NCBI GenBank assembly: GCA_038400315.1
Contig: CP151667.1
Coordinates: forward strand, 6,273,174-6,337,173
Length of the DNA: 64,000 nt
Direction of reading: 5' to 3'
Origin: Isosphaeraceae bacterium EP7
GTDB lineage: Bacteria; Planctomycetota; Planctomycetia; Isosphaerales; Isosphaeraceae
Positions 37,450 to 46,591 of the stretch are shown here, in pieces. The position numbers were made by a program, and so were the translations under genes. The notes under the pieces are model-generated. The model did no database searches, was not told where the DNA came from, and saw only the letters and a program-made list of their open reading frames with translations. Numbering within the stretch: position 1 is the first letter of the stretch; each line of letters starts with the position of its first letter.

Positions 37450-40400
37450 TCATGATCCGAAGTCGCACAGCGAACGAATATACTCGCGACTGCCGTCGTT
37501 CGCCCAGCCGTCGAGCTGCGCGGTGTCCTTTAATTGCTGGCCGCGGCGGCGGTCGACGGCGAGGAAGGCGGAGTGGATGTCGGGCAGCGAGGTGAGGTCG
37601 CCCCAGAGCTTCTCGAACTGGACGACGGGGAAGACGTCCTCCTGGCCGTGTCCCCATCGCCGCTTCACGTCCTTGATCGTCACATAGGTGGGGAGTCGCG
37701 AGGCGAGCGTCCTGACGGCCTGGGCGACCTTGGCGGGGTCGGACGCGAGGTCGTCGCGGGTCAGGCCGAAGGCGCCGAGGAGGGCGTCGACGTTCACCCA
37801 ACTTGTGAGCGTGTTGTAATATTTCAACTTGAACTCGGTCTCCTCGCGCGGCTGCGCCAGGCCCTCGAGCAGCCGCAGGCGGCCGTCGACGCGTGCGAGG
37901 CCGCCGCCCCGGTCCTCGATGCGCTTGGGGATGACCTCGAAGGCGAGCGCGGCGCCCGCCTCGATCACCCGGCCGAGTGTGTCGGGGTCGGGGCGTGCGC
38001 CCAGGGTGTCGATGTTGTGGACCATCAGCCAGGTGAGGCCGGGCTGCTTCGCCAGGAGGCCGGCCAGGACCCCGTTGCGCAGCATGTTGGGCACCTCGTA
38101 GAAGTGCCCCGGGGGGTTGAACCGCTGGATCGGGACGTTATCGACGTAGTCGGACCCTTCGCCCTTGGAGCGGGCCCAGTCGAGGATGGCGCGGCGGCCG
38201 GCCTCGCGCACCTTCTGCTTGTTCTCGTCGAGGGTCTCGTGCGACGACTCTTCCCAGAGGAACGTCAGGTCGCGGGTCATCGGCACCAGCCGCTGGCCGA
38301 TCGACTGGCCGGGCGAGAGGATGACCGGCCCGACGTGGCCATACCGGCCGGTGTGCTCCAGGTGGCGGGCGATGGCGCCGTGGGTGAGGTAGCTGGTGGT
38401 GACGACGTGCGGGATGGTCGCGGCGTATTCCCTGGAGAGCTTGAGCGTCTTGGCCAGGTGCAGCTCCAGGAAGTTGCGGTGCCGCCCTTCGAGGTCGACG
38501 AACGGGTTGATGGCCTTGACGACCCCTGCGCCGGTGGTCCAGCGGCTGCCGACTCCGGCGGCGAGCGAGACGACGGCGACCCTGCCCTCGCGAAGGGCGG
38601 CCTCACCCAGTCGTCGGGTCGATGCGGGAGCCGGGCCCCGGGCGTCGACGAGGTCGGAGTCGGCCGCGTCCTCGATGTCGGTGTTGACGGGGAGCCGGTT
38701 GCGCGAGAGGCCGATCCTGCCGCGCTGCAGGTCGTCGCGGAGTTGCGCGTGCTGGGTGTGGTCGAACCCGTTCTCGCGGCGGATGGCCTCGGCCTGGCGG
38801 TCCCAGTCGCCCGGCGCGTCGCCGGCCGTGCGGACGACGGGGAAGAGAGCGTTGACGGTCGTGCGGAAGACCCTGAGCAACTCGCCGACATCGCCGCTCT
38901 GGTTGGCGAAGTGGTCGACGTCGGCCATCCGCAGGGGGTCGGCGGCCTGCTTCTCGGCGACCATCCTGGGGACTTGCAGGGCGTAATATCGGGGCGGCAT
39001 CATCGCCTGCGGTCCCGACATCAGCTCGGCGCTGGTGCCGGCCGGGTTGATCCTGAAGTCATAAACGACCGGCTCCATGGCGAACGGCAGCGCGTCGTCG
39101 AGCCTCGCCTTGGTCCGGCGCATGATCTCGGCGATCCGGCCCCGGAAGTCGTCCCGGCGGGCCGGATTCACGAAGAAGCCCATGCCGCCGCCGGACATGC
39201 CGCCGAGCATCAGGAAGCCCCAGAAGTCGTCGCCTAGCTCGGCCCTGGCCTCGGCGATGATGGCCTCGGTGAACTGGCTGCTGACCCAGGGGATGATCTT
39301 CTTGAGCGGGCCGTCCCAGTTCCTGGTCGTCAGGGCGCCCAGCGCCTTGACGTCGGCGGAGCGGACTGCGGCGACGATCTGCTCGAAGATGTCGAGCGCC
39401 TCGGCACGGGCCTTCCACTCGTCCTCGCTGCGCAGGAGGTACTTCTCCGTGACCATGTTGAGGATCGGCCCGACATTCTGGGCCATCCCGCCGTGGACCA
39501 GCACGAGGCTCTCGGCCAGGGCCTTGTGGAATCCGACCGAGGAGGGCCCGCCGTCGTCGAGCAATTCATGCGCGGGGAGGAGCCGGCCCCGGCTGACGCC
39601 GGCCTCGGGGTCGTGCTCGTCGGTGACCACCCCCTTGATGACCTTGACGCCGGGGAAGATCCCGCCCGAGTCTTGCCAGCCGCCGCCCGAGCCACCGAGC
39701 CACTCGCCGAGGATGGCCCGCGAGACGACGACGGGGGCCTCGGCCGGTTCGAGCGGGCCGCCGAGGTTCTTCGCCTGTCCGGTGGCACGCATCAAAAGGC
39801 TGATCAGCGAGGCGAGCAGGTTCGTCGAGACGGCCAGGCGCGACCCCTTGGGGATGTCGCGGACCATGCTGACGATTTCCAGGCCATAGCCCGGGCGGAC
39901 GATCCGGCCGAGCAGGTCGCCCAGCCGCGCCGAGGTCCCCTCCAGCGACGACGGGATGAGGCCCGAGGCGATGACGCCGGCCTTGACCAGCCCGAGATAG
40001 TCATTGCCGAAGTTGAACAGCTCCTCCAGCGTCGACACGTCCTTGCATGCGTTGAGGTCGATGCTGGTGAGCCTCAGCACCGGCTCGGCGATAACGCGCA
40101 GGCGGGTCTCGATGGGCGGGGACGGGTGCGGATCACGGCCGTGGACGCCCAGGTCGACGGAGATGTTCAGGACGCGCGCGCCCTCGGGGTAGTCCATCCC
40201 GAGGAAGAAGATGTCGGACCAGGCGCTGTGGGAGAGGTCCATGCGCACGGGGGTGCGCTCGACCAGGATCGGGAACAGGCCGGTGTCGGGGTCGCGGGCC
40301 AGCAGCGGCCGGCGGACGCGGATGGTGTGCTCCTCGGCCACGCCGACGCGGAACATCCAGCGGTTGCCCCGGCTACCGCGGACCGACTTGCGGACCTGGT

Positions 40401-40863
40401 CGGCCAGCGTCTGATAGGTCACCTGCTCATACGCCTGGGCCAGGGCGCTGGCGAGCGTGCCGTTCATGCCCTGGGCCCGCGAGGCGGAGCGGAACGAGGC
40501 GATCGCGCCCTCGAACCGGCGGTCGAGCAGGTCTTTGATCCCGTCGAGCGGGATGGTGCCGGCGGGGTCGACCCCCGGGGCCTCCTGGATGGCGTAGCGG
40601 TAGAGCGCGTGCAGGAACATCGAGGCCCGGACCCGATGATAGAGGTTCGCCGAGCCTCGGCGGAACGCCTCCAGGTCCTCGCAGGCGAGCAGGATCTCGT
40701 CGACGCCTCGGCCCGCGATCAGGTCGCGCAGCGGCCGGTCTCGCGCTGCGGGGTCGACGGCGCAGATCGTCTCGACGAGGGGGATCGGGCCTGGGGCACT
40801 CGCCGCCACGTTGCGTTCCTCGGGATGGGTTCGTCCGGCCCCTTGGCGCCGGGTTGGGTTCAT
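37450..40863 (-). CDS. Fusion of fucokinase-like GHMP domain and UDPGP-type nucleotidyltransferase
   Basis: A 1137-residue two-domain enzyme. Residues about 190-680 resemble the fucokinase branch of GHMP kinases: RTPVRMDLSHSAWSD near 200, GGWQDSGGIFPGVK near 390 and LGGMSGGGMGFFV near 555. The ATP loop near 340 reads IPKGSRLAVSTN where active kinases have a GLGTSS-type sequence, so phosphorylation is uncertain. Residues about 755-1130 match eukaryote-type UDP-sugar pyrophosphorylases: VVSLAAGVGSRWTTG near 761, HNIDTLGARPD near 945 and VTIKDVKRRWGHGQEDVFP near 1060. The likely role is activation or salvage of a sugar to a nucleotide sugar. Bacteroides Fkp has the reverse domain order and makes GDP-fucose. 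GTG at 40809 has a better ribosome binding site (GAGGAA) and may be the true start. It follows the GalU-type gene by 20 bases. Confidence 0.85.
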   Translation of the reverse strand: MNPTRRQGAGRTHPEERNVAASAPGPIPLVETICAVDPAARDRPLRDLIAGRGVDEILLACEDLEAFRRGSANLYHRVRASMFLHALYRYAIQEAPGVDPAGTIPLDGIKDLLDRRFEGAIASFRSASRAQGMNGTLASALAQAYEQVTYQTLADQVRKSVRGSRGNRWMFRVGVAEEHTIRVRRPLLARDPDTGLFPILVERTPVRMDLSHSAWSDIFFLGMDYPEGARVLNISVDLGVHGRDPHPSPPIETRLRVIAEPVLRLTSIDLNACKDVSTLEELFNFGNDYLGLVKAGVIASGLIPSSLEGTSARLGDLLGRIVRPGYGLEIVSMVRDIPKGSRLAVSTNLLASLISLLMRATGQAKNLGGPLEPAEAPVVVSRAILGEWLGGSGGGWQDSGGIFPGVKVIKGVVTDEHDPEAGVSRGRLLPAHELLDDGGPSSVGFHKALAESLVLVHGGMAQNVGPILNMVTEKYLLRSEDEWKARAEALDIFEQIVAAVRSADVKALGALTTRNWDGPLKKIIPWVSSQFTEAIIAEARAELGDDFWGFLMLGGMSGGGMGFFVNPARRDDFRGRIAEIMRRTKARLDDALPFAMEPVVYDFRINPAGTSAELMSGPQAMMPPRYYALQVPRMVAEKQAADPLRMADVDHFANQSGDVGELLRVFRTTVNALFPVVRTAGDAPGDWDRQAEAIRRENGFDHTQHAQLRDDLQRGRIGLSRNRLPVNTDIEDAADSDLVDARGPAPASTRRLGEAALREGRVAVVSLAAGVGSRWTTGAGVVKAINPFVDLEGRHRNFLELHLAKTLKLSREYAATIPHVVTTSYLTHGAIARHLEHTGRYGHVGPVILSPGQSIGQRLVPMTRDLTFLWEESSHETLDENKQKVREAGRRAILDWARSKGEGSDYVDNVPIQRFNPPGHFYEVPNMLRNGVLAGLLAKQPGLTWLMVHNIDTLGARPDPDTLGRVIEAGAALAFEVIPKRIEDRGGGLARVDGRLRLLEGLAQPREETEFKLKYYNTLTSWVNVDALLGAFGLTRDDLASDPAKVAQAVRTLASRLPTYVTIKDVKRRWGHGQEDVFPVVQFEKLWGDLTSLPDIHSAFLAVDRRRGQQLKDTAQLDGWANDGSREYIRSLCDFGS

Positions 40864-40883: not shown

Positions 40884-41837
40884 TCAGGTGGCGGCCTGGT
40901 CGATGCGGATCACCGACTCGAGGAGGCCGGCGAGGAACGGCTCGCGGTCGACCCCGGCCAGCGACAGGGCGATCTGGGCCTCGACGGTGCCGTACTTGAC
41001 CCCCAGGTTGTACCGCGACCCGCGCGTCTCCAGGGCCAGGTAACGCTCGCGAGAGGCCAGCTCGTTCAGCGCGGTGGTCAGCTGAATCTGGACCCCCTCG
41101 CGGCGGCCGCGGCCGACCAGGTCGCCCAGGAGGTCAATGGTCGCGGGCGTCAGGACGTGCATGCCGAAGAAGCAGAGGTAGTGGCCGACGCGGAGGCCCG
41201 GGACGTGCAGCTTCAGCTCGGCCTGCGTGAGCGTGGGCTTCTCGATGATCTCGTCGATCTGGTAGACGTCGTGCCGCTCCGAAAGCCTGCGGCCGGAAAG
41301 CGTGCCGAACTGGTTGATCCGGTGCTCGCGGGTGGCCTGCACGGCCGAGACCGAGCAGCCTTCCGCGGCGGCCAGGTCCAGCAACTGGCGGGCGCAGCTG
41401 CGGTCTTCATGCGAGACGTAGACGTGGTCGCCCAGCAGCAGCAGGAAGGGCTCATCGCCGATGAAGTCGCGGGCGCACCAGACGGCGTGGCCGTAGCCCT
41501 CGGGCTCGGGCTGCACGGCGAACCGGAGCCGGCGGCCCAACTCGGCCATGATCCTCGACTGCTCGGCCCCGTCGCCGTCGGCCGGGTCGTCGGAGAGCAG
41601 GCCGGTGGCATACGACTGGAAGTGGCGGCGGTAGCGCTCCTCGTCGCCGGGCGCGGTGACGACGCAGAGCTCCTCGATCCCGCTGGCCAGGGCCTCCTCG
41701 GCGATGATCTGGAGCGTCGGCTTGGTCCGGCCGTCGCGGTCGACCAGCGGCAGCATCGCCTTCTGGACGGTGTCCGAAGTGGGATACTGCCGGCCGCCGC
41801 GGCCCGCCGCGGTGATGACCGCCTTGGTGATCTGCAT
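40884..41837 (-). CDS. GalU-type sugar-1-phosphate nucleotidyltransferase
   Basis: A 317-residue enzyme expected to make UDP-glucose (or a similar nucleotide sugar) from UTP and sugar 1-phosphate. The nucleotide loop reads VITAAGRGGRQYPTSDT with KAMLPLVD following, and later VQPEPEGYGHAVWCARDFIG and IDEIIEKP match the GalU/RmlA fold. The Gly-Arg-Gly-Gly loop differs a little from the GLGTRFLP of E. coli GalU. ATG 41837 is chosen because GGGGAAG lies upstream and the fold begins at once; a longer frame to 41960 is not protein-like. It heads the nucleotide-sugar run and would feed the epimerase and dehydrogenase. Confidence 0.88.
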   Translation of the reverse strand: MQITKAVITAAGRGGRQYPTSDTVQKAMLPLVDRDGRTKPTLQIIAEEALASGIEELCVVTAPGDEERYRRHFQSYATGLLSDDPADGDGAEQSRIMAELGRRLRFAVQPEPEGYGHAVWCARDFIGDEPFLLLLGDHVYVSHEDRSCARQLLDLAAAEGCSVSAVQATREHRINQFGTLSGRRLSERHDVYQIDEIIEKPTLTQAELKLHVPGLRVGHYLCFFGMHVLTPATIDLLGDLVGRGRREGVQIQLTTALNELASRERYLALETRGSRYNLGVKYGTVEAQIALSLAGVDREPFLAGLLESVIRIDQAAT

Positions 41838-41989
41838 GCAAACTTCCCCACCCGCTGCGTCGGCACGGTCGGGCCCGCCCGGGCCCCCCGGCGCGGGGTC
41901 TCCATCCCCCTCGACGTGCAGAGGGTAACGCAAGCGTTCCCCCACTCGCAAGCCGACCACCCGCCGGCGAGGGGGGATGGCCGCGCGCC

Positions 41990-42899: not shown

Positions 42900-42977
42900 T
42901 CGCCCCGAAGGATGACCGAGGGGCGATGCTGCGGGTGAGGTGCGACGATGGGGGCGAACGACGCCGGGTCGTTGCCC
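42900..42977 (+). promoter_or_regulatory. Structured leader of the arginine decarboxylase gene
   Basis: Two hairpins precede the gene: a 7-bp stem (TCGCCCC at 42900-42906, complement at 42920-42926) and a 10-bp stem with one bulged G (42952-42962 with 42968-42977). The second ends 25 bases before the start codon and 5 bases before a GGGGAGGG sequence. This could be an attenuator or polyamine-responsive leader; that is inference. Confidence 0.35.
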
Positions 42978-43002
42978 TTCAGGGGAGGGTTCCAGGACCA
43001 CG

Positions 43003-43548
43003 ATGTACGTACCGAAACAACTCTTCTTCACCAAGGGCGTGGGCACGCATCGCGAGAAGCTGACGAGCTTCGAGATGGCCCTGCGCGACGCGAAGATCGC
43101 CTGCTATAACCTGGTCCGCGTCTCCAGCATCTTCCCGCCCCTCTGCGAAGAGACCGGAATTGATGAGGGCGTCGCCCAGCTGATGCCGGGCCAGATCGTC
43201 CACGTCGTCATGAGCGAGGCGGCCACCGCCGAGCCCAATCGGCTGATCGCCGCCAGCGTCGGCGTGGCCATCCCCCGCGACCGGTCGACGTTCGGCTACC
43301 TGTCGGAGCACCACGCCTACGGCCAGACGGCCAAGGCCGCCGCCGACTACGCCGAAGACCTCGCCGCCGAGATGCTCGCGACCGTCCTGGGCGTCGAGTT
43401 CGATCCCGACGGCTCGTGGGACGAGAAGCGCGAGATCTGGCGCATCGCCGACGTCATCTACAAGACGAAGGAAGTCACCCAGACCGCCGTCGGCCACAAG
43501 GACGGACACTGGACCACCGTCGTCGCCGCCGCCATCCTGCTGCCCTGA
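43003..43548 (+). CDS. Pyruvoyl-dependent arginine decarboxylase
   Basis: A 181-residue enzyme that decarboxylates arginine to agmatine, the first step of one polyamine pathway. It carries a pyruvoyl group formed by self-cleavage between Ser41 and Ser42 (NLVRVSSIFPP), the position and context used by the archaeal and chlamydial enzymes. Other family segments are GVAIPRDRSTFGYLSEHHAYG and the C-terminal VTQTAVGHKDGHWTTVVAAA. The length fits the 150-200 residues of the family. ATG 43003 has AGGA five bases and GGGGAGGG further upstream; an upstream frame to 42940 is not conserved-looking. A structured leader lies in front. The deoxyhypusine-synthase-like gene 850 bases downstream supports a polyamine role. 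Confidence 0.93.
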   Translation: MYVPKQLFFTKGVGTHREKLTSFEMALRDAKIACYNLVRVSSIFPPLCEETGIDEGVAQLMPGQIVHVVMSEAATAEPNRLIAASVGVAIPRDRSTFGYLSEHHAYGQTAKAAADYAEDLAAEMLATVLGVEFDPDGSWDEKREIWRIADVIYKTKEVTQTAVGHKDGHWTTVVAAAILLP

Positions 43549-43570
43549 GGCACGGAACTCACCAACCGGG

Positions 43571-43619
43571 GACCAGGATCGGGCCCATTGATCGGGGCTC
43601 CGACCTGGCTCCTGGTCGG
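43571..43619 (+). terminator. Candidate terminator or switch after the decarboxylase gene
   Basis: GACCAGGA at 43571-43578 can pair with TCCTGGTC at 43610-43617, or CCGACC at 43600-43605 with GGTCGG at 43614-43619. The two pairings exclude each other. The site separates the decarboxylase gene from the toxin-antitoxin pair. Confidence 0.35.
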
Positions 43620-43686
43620 ATGCTCGCATAACCGCCGTCGATCATCATCAATGCCGCGGCCCTCCAACCGGACGGGTAGGTGATGC

Positions 43687-43917
43687 ATGGATTACCAATC
43701 GATCCTCGAAGAGGTCGAGACCTGGCCCGTCGACGAACGCCTACGGCTGGCCGATGAGATCTGGCGCCGGACCCCCGGCGAGCGAGAAGACTCGGAGCTA
43801 TCCGACGCGTGGAAGGCGGAATTGCTTCTCCGGATCGACGAGATGGACAGTAACCCGGACGCTGGCATCCCCTGGGAAGTCATCAGGGCCGAGACCCTGA
43901 AGCGACTCAGGCCGTGA
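43687..43917 (+). CDS. Antitoxin, TIGR02574-type addiction module component
   Basis: A 76-residue antitoxin. The N-terminal helix pattern WPVDERLRLADEIWRR, a disordered acidic middle and the closing NPDAGIPWEVIRAETLKRL are characteristic of the putative addiction-module family TIGR02574, which neutralises RelE/ParE-type toxins. It overlaps the toxin gene by 4 bases, the usual arrangement. The start ATG 43687 follows AGGTGATGC. Such antitoxins normally repress their own promoter, but I saw no clear operator. Confidence 0.9.
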   Translation: MDYQSILEEVETWPVDERLRLADEIWRRTPGEREDSELSDAWKAELLLRIDEMDSNPDAGIPWEVIRAETLKRLRP

Positions 43918-44207
43918 ATCTGCCTGTCATCCTCGGCCCTCCGGCCGCCCTGGAATTCAAGGCCGGGGTCGACTGGTATGAGCGTGAAGCAGGGCTGGGC
44001 GAGGCGTTCCTCGATCGCGTGAACGAGACCTTGGATCGAATCGGGCGAATGCCCGAGTTGCATGCCCCCATCTTCGCGGGCATCCGTCGCGCTCGGGTCG
44101 AACGGTTTCCCTACCACGTCTTCTATCGGATCCTTGAAGACCGGGTCGAAGTGCTCGCGATTCACCACAGCAGCCGCGATCCGAAGAACTGGAAAGACCG
44201 GGCGTGA
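43914..44207 (+). CDS. RelE/ParE-type toxin
   Basis: A 97-residue toxin of the RelE/ParE superfamily. It begins with GTG overlapping the antitoxin stop (GTGA), so expression is coupled. The fold signatures are AALEFKAGVDWYEREAGLGEAF, ARVERFPYHVFYRILEDRVEV and the C-terminal IHHSSRDPKNWKDR, which includes the Arg and His residues that often act in catalysis. Whether it cuts ribosome-bound mRNA like RelE or poisons gyrase like ParE cannot be told from sequence alone; the VFYRI form is commoner in ParE-like proteins. The pair lies between two polyamine genes. Confidence 0.9.
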   Translation: MNLPVILGPPAALEFKAGVDWYEREAGLGEAFLDRVNETLDRIGRMPELHAPIFAGIRRARVERFPYHVFYRILEDRVEVLAIHHSSRDPKNWKDRA

Positions 44208-44395
44208 TCAGACCGAAGGATCGCCCCGCGATCGATTCAGAGGTTCGCCAGGACGGATCGCCGCATTGAATCGTGGGCAATCCTCTTCGGCCTTCCGACT
44301 CCAGGTTGCTCTGGTCGGATACGGATCTCTTCTCTCGCCCATGACCGAGTCCCGACGCCATCGCGGGATCTTCTTGATTCGAAAGTGACACCGTC

Positions 44396-45562
44396 ATGAC
44401 GACGCCCGAAGGCGAAGCTTCCCCCGCGCTGCACAAGGTCAGCAAGCATCGGATCGCCCCCCCGGCCGTGACCGGCGATGTGGCCGCGGCCGACCTGATC
44501 GACGGCGCCTTCCTGAGCTACAACGCCGGGCGGCTCCGCGAGGTCTGCCAGGTCTTCACCCGCAAGATGCTCCAGCCCGACTGCACCGTCGGCCTGACGC
44601 TCTCGGGCGCCCTGACCCCCGCCGGGCTGGGGATGAGCTGCCTGATCCCCTTGATCCGCGCCGGATTCGTCGACTGGATCGTCTCAACAGGCGCAAACCT
44701 TTATCACGATACGCATTACGCTCTCGACCTGCCGCTCCACCAGAGCGGCCCGAACCTCGACGACTTCAAGCTGCGTGAGCACGACATCATCCGGATCTAC
44801 GACATCGTCTTCGACTACAAGACGCTGCTCGACACGGATGCGTTCTACCGGACCCTGATCGAGAGCGAGCCGTTCGCCAAGAGCATGGGGACGGCCGAGT
44901 TCCACAACCTGGTGGGGGCCTATCTCCACGAGCGTTCCGTCAAGCTGGGTCGGCCCGCCAATAGCCTGCTGGCCGCGGCCTACGAGGCTGGGGTGCCGAT
45001 TTATACGTCGAGCCCCGGCGACAGCTCGATCGGCATGAACCTGGCCGCGCTCAGCCTCCAGGGAAGCGCCCTGCAAATCGACACCTTGCGGGACGTGAAC
45101 GAGACGGCCGCGATCGTGTACGACGCCAAGAAGGGGGGCGGGGCCTCGGCCGTCCTGATCCTGGGCGGCGGCAGTCCCAAGAACTTCATCCTCCAGACCG
45201 AACCGCAGATTCAGGAAGTCCTGGGCCTGGACGAGAGCGGTCACGACTACTTCCTGCAAGTCACCGACGCGAGGCCGGATACCGGCGGTCTCTCGGGCGC
45301 AACTGCCAGCGAGGCCATGACCTGGGGCAAGGTCGACCCCGAGCGTCTGCCCGATAGCGTGACCTGCTACACCGACACCACCATCGCGCTGCCCTTGCTG
45401 ACCGCCTATGCCCTGGCCCGTCACGAGCCGAGGCCCTTGAAGCGACTGTACGACCGCCGCGAGGTGATCTACGAGGCTCTCCGTTCGGAGTATCTGAAGC
45501 GTCACCATCAGGGCGACGGCCCGAGCATCGAGGCCCGCAAGCGGCCCGCAAACCCGGCCTGA
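44396..45562 (+). CDS. Deoxyhypusine synthase family protein, probable polyamine synthase
   Basis: A 388-residue NAD-dependent aminobutyl-transferase of the deoxyhypusine synthase family. Lys262 in LGGGSPKNF corresponds to the catalytic lysine that forms the enzyme-butylimine intermediate in the eukaryotic enzyme. [28 protein letters not shown] and [12 protein letters not shown] cover the NAD and substrate sites. Bacteria lack hypusine-bearing eIF5A, and several bacterial homologues are homospermidine synthases, so a similar role is likely here. With the arginine decarboxylase upstream, a route using agmatine or putrescine is plausible. ATG 44396 has no clear ribosome binding site. It is followed 18 bases later by tsaC. 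Confidence 0.9.
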
Positions 45563-45580: not shown

Positions 45581-46591
45581 GTGGACCCCGCCGAAACCCG
45601 CCTGATCACCGTCGATCGCGACGCCCCGCAGGCGTCCGCGATCGACGAGGCGGCGCGGGCCCTGAGGCGGGGCGAACTCGTCGCCTTCGCCACCGAGACG
45701 GTTTACGGCCTGGGGGCCGACGCACTCGACCCCGACGCCGTCGCCCGGATCTTCGCCGCCAAAGGTCGACCGGCGACCAACCCCCTGATCGTGCACGCCG
45801 CCGACGTGGACGGGGCCCGGGCCTGCGTCTCGGCCTGGCCCGACGACGCCCAGACCCTGGCCGAGGCCTTCTGGCCGGGACCGCTCACGCTCGTCCTGCC
45901 CGCCTCGGCGAACATCCCGCCGATCGTGACCGCCGGACGGTCGACCGTCGGCATCCGCATCCCCAGACCCGAGGTCGCCCGTGCCCTGATCAGGGCCGCA
46001 GGTAGGCCGATCGCCGCCCCCAGCGCGAATCGATCGAACGGCGTCTCGCCCACCTTGGCCGAGCACGTCCGCAAAGACCTGGACGGGCGAATTGCCATGA
46101 TCCTGGACAGCGGACCGGCCGAAGTCGGGCTCGAATCCACGGTCCTGGACCTCTCGGGCGTCACCCCGGTCGTGCTCCGACCTGGCCAGGTTTCCTCGGC
46201 CGAGATCGCCGCGATCCTGGGCCGACCGGTCTTCGAATCGACCGTGCATGCTCCGGCTTCAGGCCCGTACGGGCTGGCAAGCCCGGGACAGCTCGCGGTC
46301 CATTACGCGCCGAGGACGCCGGCCGACTGGGTCGAACGTCTCGATGAGGGCGTCGCCCGGGCAGAACAGGAGGCTGGGGTCGGGCTCCTCGTCATCGGTC
46401 GGACGGTTGAACGCGGATCGGGGACGATCCTCTCCCTGGAAACTCCCGAGCAGGCTGCCCGCGAGCTGTATGCGACGCTACACGCCTGGGACGAGCTTGG
46501 CCTATCGCGGATCGTGATCGTCCCGCCCCCCGACCTGCCCGAGTGGAGGGCGATCCGCGACCGACTCCGCCGCGCGACCGGCCCTCGGTGA
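45581..46591 (+). CDS. tsaC: L-threonylcarbamoyladenylate synthase, Sua5 type
   Basis: A 336-residue enzyme that makes threonylcarbamoyl-AMP from threonine, bicarbonate and ATP for the t6A modification of tRNA position 37. The YrdC fold carries ATETVYGLGADAL, KGRPATNPLIVH and PSANRSNGVSPT. A linker (SPGQLAVHYAPRTPAD) and a C-terminal Sua5 domain (about 240-335) mark the long Sua5 form rather than the short TsaC. It begins with GTG 45581 after GGGAAGAGACCC. It is 18 bases downstream of the polyamine synthase gene and its stop lies 11 bases from the ruvB stop on the other strand. Confidence 0.95.
   Translation: MDPAETRLITVDRDAPQASAIDEAARALRRGELVAFATETVYGLGADALDPDAVARIFAAKGRPATNPLIVHAADVDGARACVSAWPDDAQTLAEAFWPGPLTLVLPASANIPPIVTAGRSTVGIRIPRPEVARALIRAAGRPIAAPSANRSNGVSPTLAEHVRKDLDGRIAMILDSGPAEVGLESTVLDLSGVTPVVLRPGQVSSAEIAAILGRPVFESTVHAPASGPYGLASPGQLAVHYAPRTPADWVERLDEGVARAEQEAGVGLLVIGRTVERGSGTILSLETPEQAARELYATLHAWDELGLSRIVIVPPPDLPEWRAIRDRLRRATGPR

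What the first reader, a model, noticed from the sequence alone, without database searches (positions are those of the whole stretch)
42900..45562. Pyruvoyl arginine decarboxylase, toxin-antitoxin pair and deoxyhypusine-synthase-like enzyme in one cluster
An archaeal-type pyruvoyl arginine decarboxylase and a DHS-family enzyme with the catalytic Lys262 are co-directional. Together they suggest an agmatine-derived route to an unusual polyamine. A complete TIGR02574/RelE-type addiction module sits exactly between them, which would stabilise the locus or couple it to growth control. The final product cannot be told from sequence.
Basis: partly seen in the sequence, partly recalled or inferred. 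Interest (0 to 1): 0.62.

Follow-up and report, generated by a model that had tools for sequence, protein, structure and literature searches.

The report
Homospermidine genes with a stray toxin-antitoxin
Two neighbouring genes in a planctomycete bacterium very probably help make the polyamine homospermidine from arginine by a route known from other bacteria, and the toxin-antitoxin pair between them looks like a one-off insertion with no shown link to them.

Summary
The genes are real: a pyruvoyl arginine decarboxylase (43003-43548), a TIGR02574 antitoxin with a ParE-type toxin (43687-44207), and a deoxyhypusine-synthase (DHS) homologue (44396-45562), followed by a Sua5/TsaC gene. The homologue passes the NCBIfam cut-off for 'homospermidine biosynthesis protein' (SpeY; 577 against 450 bits) and fails those for true deoxyhypusine synthase and for the agmatine-coupling enzyme CdmS. 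The catalytic lysine is Lys312, not Lys262. The genome also holds adjacent agmatine-deiminase-family and N-carbamoylputrescine-amidase-like genes; arginase/agmatinase, AdoMet decarboxylase and spermidine synthase were searched and not found at cut-off. Best reading: arginine, agmatine, N-carbamoylputrescine, putrescine, homospermidine. SpeY follows the decarboxylase in 34 of 45 family genomes; PvlArgDC also sits beside SpeY or another DHS homologue in other phyla. The toxin-antitoxin pair lies in that gap in 1 of the 34, so it is not part of a conserved unit. Gimesia maris is published with the same layout but a pyruvoyl decarboxylase candidate of another family. This is a new variant of a known pathway. 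An open side result: Paludisphaera-like and Isosphaera relatives lack SpeY and carry other DHS-fold enzymes. No activity has been tested.

The parts
43003..43548 (+). Archaeal-type pyruvoyl-dependent arginine decarboxylase (PvlArgDC), 181 aa; Ser41-Ser42 in RVSSIFPP is the expected self-cleavage site
   Evidence: PF01862 205.5 bits, TIGR00286 120 over cut-off, NF009064 194 under its 207; aligned to the RISS motif of 2qqd
43687..43917 (+). Antitoxin, TIGR02574 / Unstab_antitox, 76 aa; not part of the conserved pathway unit
   Evidence: only PF09720 match in the whole genome
43914..44207 (+). ParE_toxin-family toxin, 97 aa, GTG start overlapping the antitoxin stop
   Evidence: PF05016 39.9 bits
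44396..45562 (+). DHS homologue of SpeY type, predicted homospermidine synthase, 388 aa; catalytic Lys312 at 45329-45331
   Evidence: NF001980 576.6 bits against 450; in a 27-row SpeY clade, 100/99; model pLDDT 90.7, best PDB matches are deoxyhypusine synthases
45581..46591 (+). Sua5/TsaC L-threonylcarbamoyladenylate synthase, 336 aa; conserved neighbour of unknown relevance to the pathway
   Evidence: TIGR00057 198 bits, cut-off 123.2; found after SpeY in 31 of 34 family genomes

Best explanation
The cluster is the dedicated part of a homospermidine pathway. PvlArgDC cleaves itself at Ser41-Ser42 to form a pyruvoyl group and decarboxylates arginine to agmatine. Agmatine deiminase (AguA) and N-carbamoylputrescine amidase (AguB), encoded together elsewhere in the chromosome (C1:4867116-4869044, minus strand), turn agmatine into putrescine. 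The DHS homologue (SpeY) then, with NAD, oxidises one putrescine, holds the aminobutyl group as an imine on Lys312 and passes it to a second putrescine, giving sym-homospermidine. The toxin-antitoxin pair is a lineage-specific insertion in the gap between the two genes. Shown here: the genes, their families, the conserved lysine, the predicted fold, the linkage, and the absence at cut-off of the competing families that were searched (arginase/agmatinase, AdoMet decarboxylase, spermidine synthase). Inferred from relatives and family knowledge: every catalytic step and the product.
For: SpeY equivalog cut-off passed, 576.6 against 450; SpeY clade with 100/99 support. AguA-family gene, PF04371 394.8 bits, with an AguB-like gene beside it. 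No PF00491 (arginase/agmatinase) in the genome and in only 3 of 45 family genomes; no PF02675 (AdoMet decarboxylase), 3 of 45; PF01564 only under cut-off, in a 925-aa frame (sequence); the single PF02784 hit reads to me as LysA. SpeY follows the decarboxylase in 34 of 45 genomes; in the phylum sample PvlArgDC is in 26 of 37 genomes with SpeY over cut-off against 51 of 257 others, Fisher p 1.7e-9, not corrected for descent. SpeY over cut-off adjoins PvlArgDC in 4 named loci of Hydrogenedentes, Acidobacteria and Chloroflexi. [quoted passage not shown]
Against: I found no polyamine measurement for an organism known to have this gene set (searches; most of the listed papers were not opened). AguA and AguB score under their NCBIfam equivalog cut-offs (255.5 against 381.8; 297.3 against 410.25). 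NF009064 is missed by the decarboxylase (194 against 207). Not searched for: the other, non-DHS homospermidine synthase (HSS), aspartate-aminotransferase-fold decarboxylases, carboxyspermidine dehydrogenase and IF5A. Isosphaera pallida, the family member with a reported sym-homospermidine, has no SpeY but a CdmS-type enzyme, so it does not test SpeY. Outside the family most linked DHS homologues are of another subtype: 6 of 6 tested fail NF001980, and 4 of these pass the deoxyhypusine synthase model TIGR00321. Polyamine reports for planctomycetes conflict: G. obscuriglobus is given sym-homospermidine in PMC4334474 and spermidine in PMC10817699 (passages).
Confidence: 0.85

Rival explanations
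1. [quoted passage not shown]
For: The neighbour makes agmatine; CdmS shows that a DHS homologue can do this (PMC10981699, parts 1 and 2 of 4 read); Leu299 and Glu306 are shared with CdmS-type enzymes, though also with nearly every other row.
Against: Fails NF002699 (163.8 against 500 bits), which the three planctomycete CdmS-type proteins pass at 601-609. Met214 stands where CdmS has Phe204 and the three CdmS-type rows have Phe; SpeY rows have Met (24) or Leu (2) (mapping by motif, not by structure). No ureohydrolase of PF00491 in the genome.
Confidence: 0.08
2. True deoxyhypusine synthase: the enzyme modifies a protein lysine (an EF-P or IF5A-like factor).
For: Same fold as deoxyhypusine synthase (best PDB match 1roz, TM 0.71/0.85) and the same catalytic lysine.
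Against: TIGR00321 176.3 against 304.25 and the other DHS models under cut-off; no AdoMet decarboxylase and no spermidine synthase over cut-off to supply the usual donor; SpeY is reported not to form deoxyhypusine. An IF5A search of this genome was not run.
Confidence: 0.03
3. The toxin-antitoxin pair is a functional part of the unit, stabilising the polyamine genes or linking them to growth.
For: It lies exactly between the two genes, on the same strand, and no terminator-like or promoter-like site was found in the interval; it is the only PF09720 match in the genome.
Against: Present in this gap in 1 of 34 family genomes; 4 others hold different small open frames there and the remaining 29 have only 26-182 bases measured to the SpeY match. 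Its third-position GC is lower (0.79 and 0.74) than in the decarboxylase (0.92), SpeY (0.88) and Sua5 (0.84) genes, as expected of a recent arrival.
Confidence: 0.05

Closest known systems
speDA-speY of Gimesia maris with aguA/aguB elsewhere (PMC10407285)
   Same: Candidate pyruvoyl arginine decarboxylase directly upstream of speY; agmatine deiminase and amidase clustered elsewhere in a planctomycete
   Different: The decarboxylase there is a homologue of AdoMet decarboxylase (SpeD); here it is of the archaeal PvlArgDC family
SpeY of Anabaena and relatives (NF001980; Burnat 2018, seen only as a cited reference)
   Same: Described as a DHS homologue needed for homospermidine; that NF001980 is this family is recalled
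   Different: Neighbourhood and decarboxylase type in cyanobacteria are recalled, not tested; no cyanobacterial sequence was compared here
CdmS, caldomycin synthase of Thermus thermophilus (PMC10981699)
   Same: DHS homologue on a route from agmatine to homospermidine
   Different: Couples agmatine and relies on a ureohydrolase; the window's protein fails the NF002699 model
PvlArgDC - DHS homologue - agmatinase clusters in Acidobacteria, Chloroflexi, Zixibacteria and Deltaproteobacteria
   Same: Same decarboxylase family linked to a DHS homologue; SpeY proper in the Acidobacteria and Chloroflexi loci
   Different: Agmatinase in the cluster instead of distant AguA/AguB; the Zixibacteria and Deltaproteobacteria loci tested carry a different DHS subtype
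TIGR02574 / ParE-RelE type II toxin-antitoxin modules
   Same: Antitoxin and toxin families and overlapping frames
   Different: Placed inside this gene pair in 1 of the 34 family genomes

Membership tests
SpeY (DHS-like homospermidine synthase, NF001980) | Passes the curated NCBIfam cut-off | tested here: met
   576.6 against 450 bits
SpeY (DHS-like homospermidine synthase, NF001980) | Catalytic lysine equivalent to human Lys329 | tested here: met
   K312, invariant in 33 of 33 rows; Lys329/Lys299 from PMC10981699, placed by the WGK motif
SpeY (DHS-like homospermidine synthase, NF001980) | Groups with other NF001980 proteins in a tree | tested here: met
   27-row clade 100/99; 31-row clade 95/89 with the 44-46% identical forms. 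No experimentally proven SpeY was in the tree
SpeY (DHS-like homospermidine synthase, NF001980) | Makes homospermidine from putrescine | not testable with these tools
   No assay
[quoted passage not shown]
   163.8 against 500 bits
[quoted passage not shown]
   No PF00491 match in G000
Deoxyhypusine synthase (TIGR00321) | Passes the curated NCBIfam cut-off | tested here: not met
   176.3 against 304.25 bits
Deoxyhypusine synthase (TIGR00321) | IF5A-like acceptor protein in the genome | not tested
   No search was run
Pyruvoyl-dependent arginine decarboxylase | Family models PF01862 and TIGR00286 | tested here: met
   Both over cut-off; the narrower NF009064 is not reached, 194 against 207
Pyruvoyl-dependent arginine decarboxylase | Ser-Ser self-cleavage site | tested here: met
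   S41-S42 aligned to the SS of 2qqd
AguA/AguB putrescine route | Agmatine-deiminase-family and amidase-like genes present and linked | tested here: met
   PF04371 394.8 bits; TIGR03381 is the best match of its neighbour; adjacent on the same strand
AguA/AguB putrescine route | Equivalog cut-offs TIGR03380 and TIGR03381 | tested here: not met
   255.5 against 381.8 and 297.3 against 410.25; function is therefore inferred from best match and linkage
TIGR02574/ParE toxin-antitoxin module | Both families in overlapping frames | tested here: met
TIGR02574/ParE toxin-antitoxin module | Toxicity and its neutralisation | not testable with these tools
   No assay

The most novel reading that the evidence does not exclude
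In Isosphaeraceae the guanidino groups may be removed after, not before, the coupling step: a DHS-fold enzyme joins two agmatines and the deiminase/amidase pair then trims the product to homospermidine. Isosphaera pallida fits this best (CdmS-type enzyme, AguA-family and AguB-like genes, no PF00491 ureohydrolase, reported sym-homospermidine); for the SpeY enzyme of this window it is not excluded but less likely.
Probability: 0.1. Interest if true: 0.5.

Novelty: new variant of a known kind. Interest (0 to 1): 0.3.

Why it matters
It gives a family of little-studied planctomycetes a testable route to their polyamine, and shows that pyruvoyl arginine decarboxylases of two different families (PvlArgDC here, the SpeDA candidate in Gimesia maris) have each come to sit beside speY. 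It also removes a tempting but unsupported link between a toxin-antitoxin pair and polyamines. The exchange of DHS-fold enzymes within the family offers a natural test of which substrate each type uses.

Tried and rejected
Agmatine as direct substrate (CdmS type): rejected as first choice by the NF002699 score and the missing ureohydrolase. True deoxyhypusine synthase: rejected by model scores. Spermidine route: no AdoMet decarboxylase match, and the only PF01564 match lies under cut-off in a long frame. Toxin-antitoxin as conserved part: rejected, 1 of 34. Mobile-element ends around the pair: one imperfect 17-base direct repeat (82%), one copy of it inside the toxin gene, and no inverted repeat, so no insertion mechanism is claimed. 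Promoter and terminator scan: nothing found. Seven neighbours of divergent DHS genes tested with Pfam (EamA transporter twice, mannosyltransferase-like, FAD oxidoreductase, DUF559, epimerase, solute-binding protein) gave no pathway clue. The small open frames in the gap of G009 and G044 had no Pfam match; those of G010 and G026 were not tested. A paper search for 'pyruvoyl-dependent arginine decarboxylase' with 'Planctomycet' gave 0 papers, and 'Paludisphaera' with 'homospermidine' gave 1, on Stieleria (listing only); this is one open-access library, not proof of absence.
Full report
What is there. The window lies on the main contig of a 7.2-Mb genome (G000:C1:6273174-6337173). Named records with the closest decarboxylase include Singulisphaera, Aquisphaera, Tautonia and Paludisphaera (titles), so it is a planctomycete of the Isosphaeraceae or near it. 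Four genes in a row on the + strand match the finding: PvlArgDC 43003-43548, antitoxin 43687-43917, toxin 43914-44207, DHS homologue 44396-45562; a Sua5/TsaC gene follows 18 bases later. The decarboxylase keeps the Ser-Ser cleavage motif.

What the DHS homologue is. [quoted passage not shown] In a tree of 53 chosen DHS homologues it sits in a 27-row SpeY clade (100/99) with proteins from other planctomycetes, Acidobacteria, Hydrogenedentes and Chloroflexi; no experimentally proven SpeY or CdmS was among the rows. The predicted model (pLDDT 90.7) matches deoxyhypusine synthases best in the PDB, which shows the fold, not the substrate.

The rest of the pathway. In 45 genomes of the family: DS fold 42, PvlArgDC 43, agmatine deiminase family 41, arginase/agmatinase family 3, AdoMet decarboxylase family 3. 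The AguB model TIGR03381 has matches in all 45, up to 14 a genome, but none over its cut-off. In the window's genome the deiminase and the best amidase match lie side by side; PF00491 and PF02675 have no match; the one PF01564 match is under cut-off in a 925-aa frame; the one PF02784 match reads as LysA (the LysA reading is mine, by eye, from the sequence and an argininosuccinate-lyase-like neighbour). Caveats: both AguA and AguB proteins are under their equivalog cut-offs, and the non-DHS homospermidine synthase, aspartate-aminotransferase-fold decarboxylases, carboxyspermidine dehydrogenase and IF5A were not searched. The simplest complete route is arginine, agmatine, N-carbamoylputrescine, putrescine, homospermidine.

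Linkage in the family. SpeY directly follows the decarboxylase in 34 of 45 genomes, three of these read only partly at contig ends (G007, G035, G044); the others were assigned to SpeY by 72-84% identity to the window's protein, not by a model scan. Of the other 11, 8 carry a different DHS homologue away from the decarboxylase (G011, G025, G027-G032), G006 showed the decarboxylase alone and G012 and G036 neither. Sua5 follows SpeY in 31 of the 34; two contigs end first and G014 lacks it.

Linkage beyond it. In an evenly drawn phylum sample of 294, SpeY over cut-off occurs in 37 and PvlArgDC in 77, together in 26 (Fisher p 1.7e-9, not corrected for descent). But the flanks of up to 1.5 kb of 29 SpeY loci other than the window's own showed no PvlArgDC or Sua5, so tight adjacency to SpeY is not phylum-wide. 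G272, G045, G324, G328 and G174 carry the decarboxylase next to or near some DHS homologue. Of 80 named loci kept from 156 matches, 28 (83-90% identical decarboxylase) are taken as this family; of the other 52, 24 show a DHS homologue within the fetched flank. Ten of these 24 (with G045 in place of one, so 9 plus G045) were scanned with NCBIfam: 4 pass NF001980 (L209, L217, L218, L256) and 6 do not; of the 6, which are closest to the deoxyhypusine synthase model NF002006 just under its cut-off, 4 pass TIGR00321. Outside the family the linkage is therefore mostly to another DHS subtype. In one search I looked by eye at 15 of the 24 loci; 12 show an agmatinase-like gene in or beside the pair, while L209, L217 and L220 showed none in the stretch read. 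Ten of the 12 were scanned and all 10 pass the agmatinase cut-off. So decarboxylase and DHS homologue form a recurrent unit, often with agmatinase in other phyla and with AguA/AguB elsewhere in the genome here.

The toxin-antitoxin pair. A search with both proteins finds it in the decarboxylase-SpeY gap of the window's genome only, 1 of 34; one weaker relative lies elsewhere in G009 (L080). The gap is 850 bases here; 485-575 in G009, G010, G026 and G044, which hold other small open frames (no Pfam match for the two tested); and 26-182 in the other 29 (measured to the SpeY match). The pair has lower third-position GC than its neighbours and is the only PF09720 match in the genome. A chance insertion into a permissive gap explains this; a role in polyamine control has no comparative support, though a recent, lineage-specific effect cannot be excluded.

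Comparison with what is known. [quoted passage not shown] PMC10407285 (passages) reports gene clusters of SpeD-derived arginine decarboxylases with speY and either speB or aguA/aguB, including Gimesia maris with a speDA candidate immediately upstream of speY and aguA/aguB elsewhere. The window shows the same design with a decarboxylase of the PvlArgDC family. CdmS (PMC10981699, parts 1 and 2 of 4) shows that a DHS homologue can instead couple agmatine. I therefore file the enzyme as SpeY by sequence and the cluster as a new variant of a known pathway.

Side results. In seven genomes (G025, G027-G032) the decarboxylase is followed directly by Sua5 with no SpeY. In a decarboxylase-plus-Sua5 tree of 35 of the 45 genomes this group lies within SpeY-bearing genomes, beside G001 and G002, and G002 holds both enzymes (midpoint-rooted, bootstrap not fully settled, place of G025 unresolved). 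This suggests gain of the second enzyme and later loss of SpeY. G011, whose chromosome length equals that of Isosphaera pallida (PMC3072084, passages), carries a CdmS-type enzyme without a PF00491 ureohydrolase, yet I. pallida is listed with sym-homospermidine only (PMC4334474 Table 8, passage). Reports for Gemmata obscuriglobus conflict, so these measurements deserve repetition.

Verdict. Interest is modest.

Noticed in passing
L099-L104 (G027-G032) and L105 (G002): A DHS-fold subfamily 23-27% identical to SpeY and far under all NCBIfam DHS cut-offs where tested (5 of 7 proteins); found in genomes without speY between the decarboxylase and Sua5 genes, and as a second copy in G002. Substrate unknown.
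   Followed up: partly
   Followed up: partly
L148:763-1185 (G009), L014 (G010), L019 (G026), L149:802-1206 (G044): Other small open frames (128-141 aa, alike in G009, G010 and G026; a different 135-aa one in G044) occupy the same decarboxylase-SpeY gap; no Pfam match for the two tested.
   Followed up: partly
L225, L228, L235, L239, L246, L210 and others: In Deltaproteobacteria, Zixibacteria and others PvlArgDC clusters with agmatinase and a DHS homologue of another subtype, near the deoxyhypusine synthase models; product unknown.
   Followed up: partly
window 45581-46591: Sua5/TsaC gene is the conserved downstream neighbour of speY across the family; whether tRNA threonylcarbamoylation and polyamines are linked or merely neighbours is open.
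   Followed up: no
window 37450-40863 (-) and 40884-41960 (-): A 1137-aa protein with a UDPGP domain in its C-terminal part beside a GalU-like nucleotidyltransferase; unusual length, not examined.
   Followed up: no
literature, PMC4334474 against PMC10817699: Polyamine reports for Gemmata obscuriglobus disagree (sym-homospermidine against spermidine).
   Followed up: no
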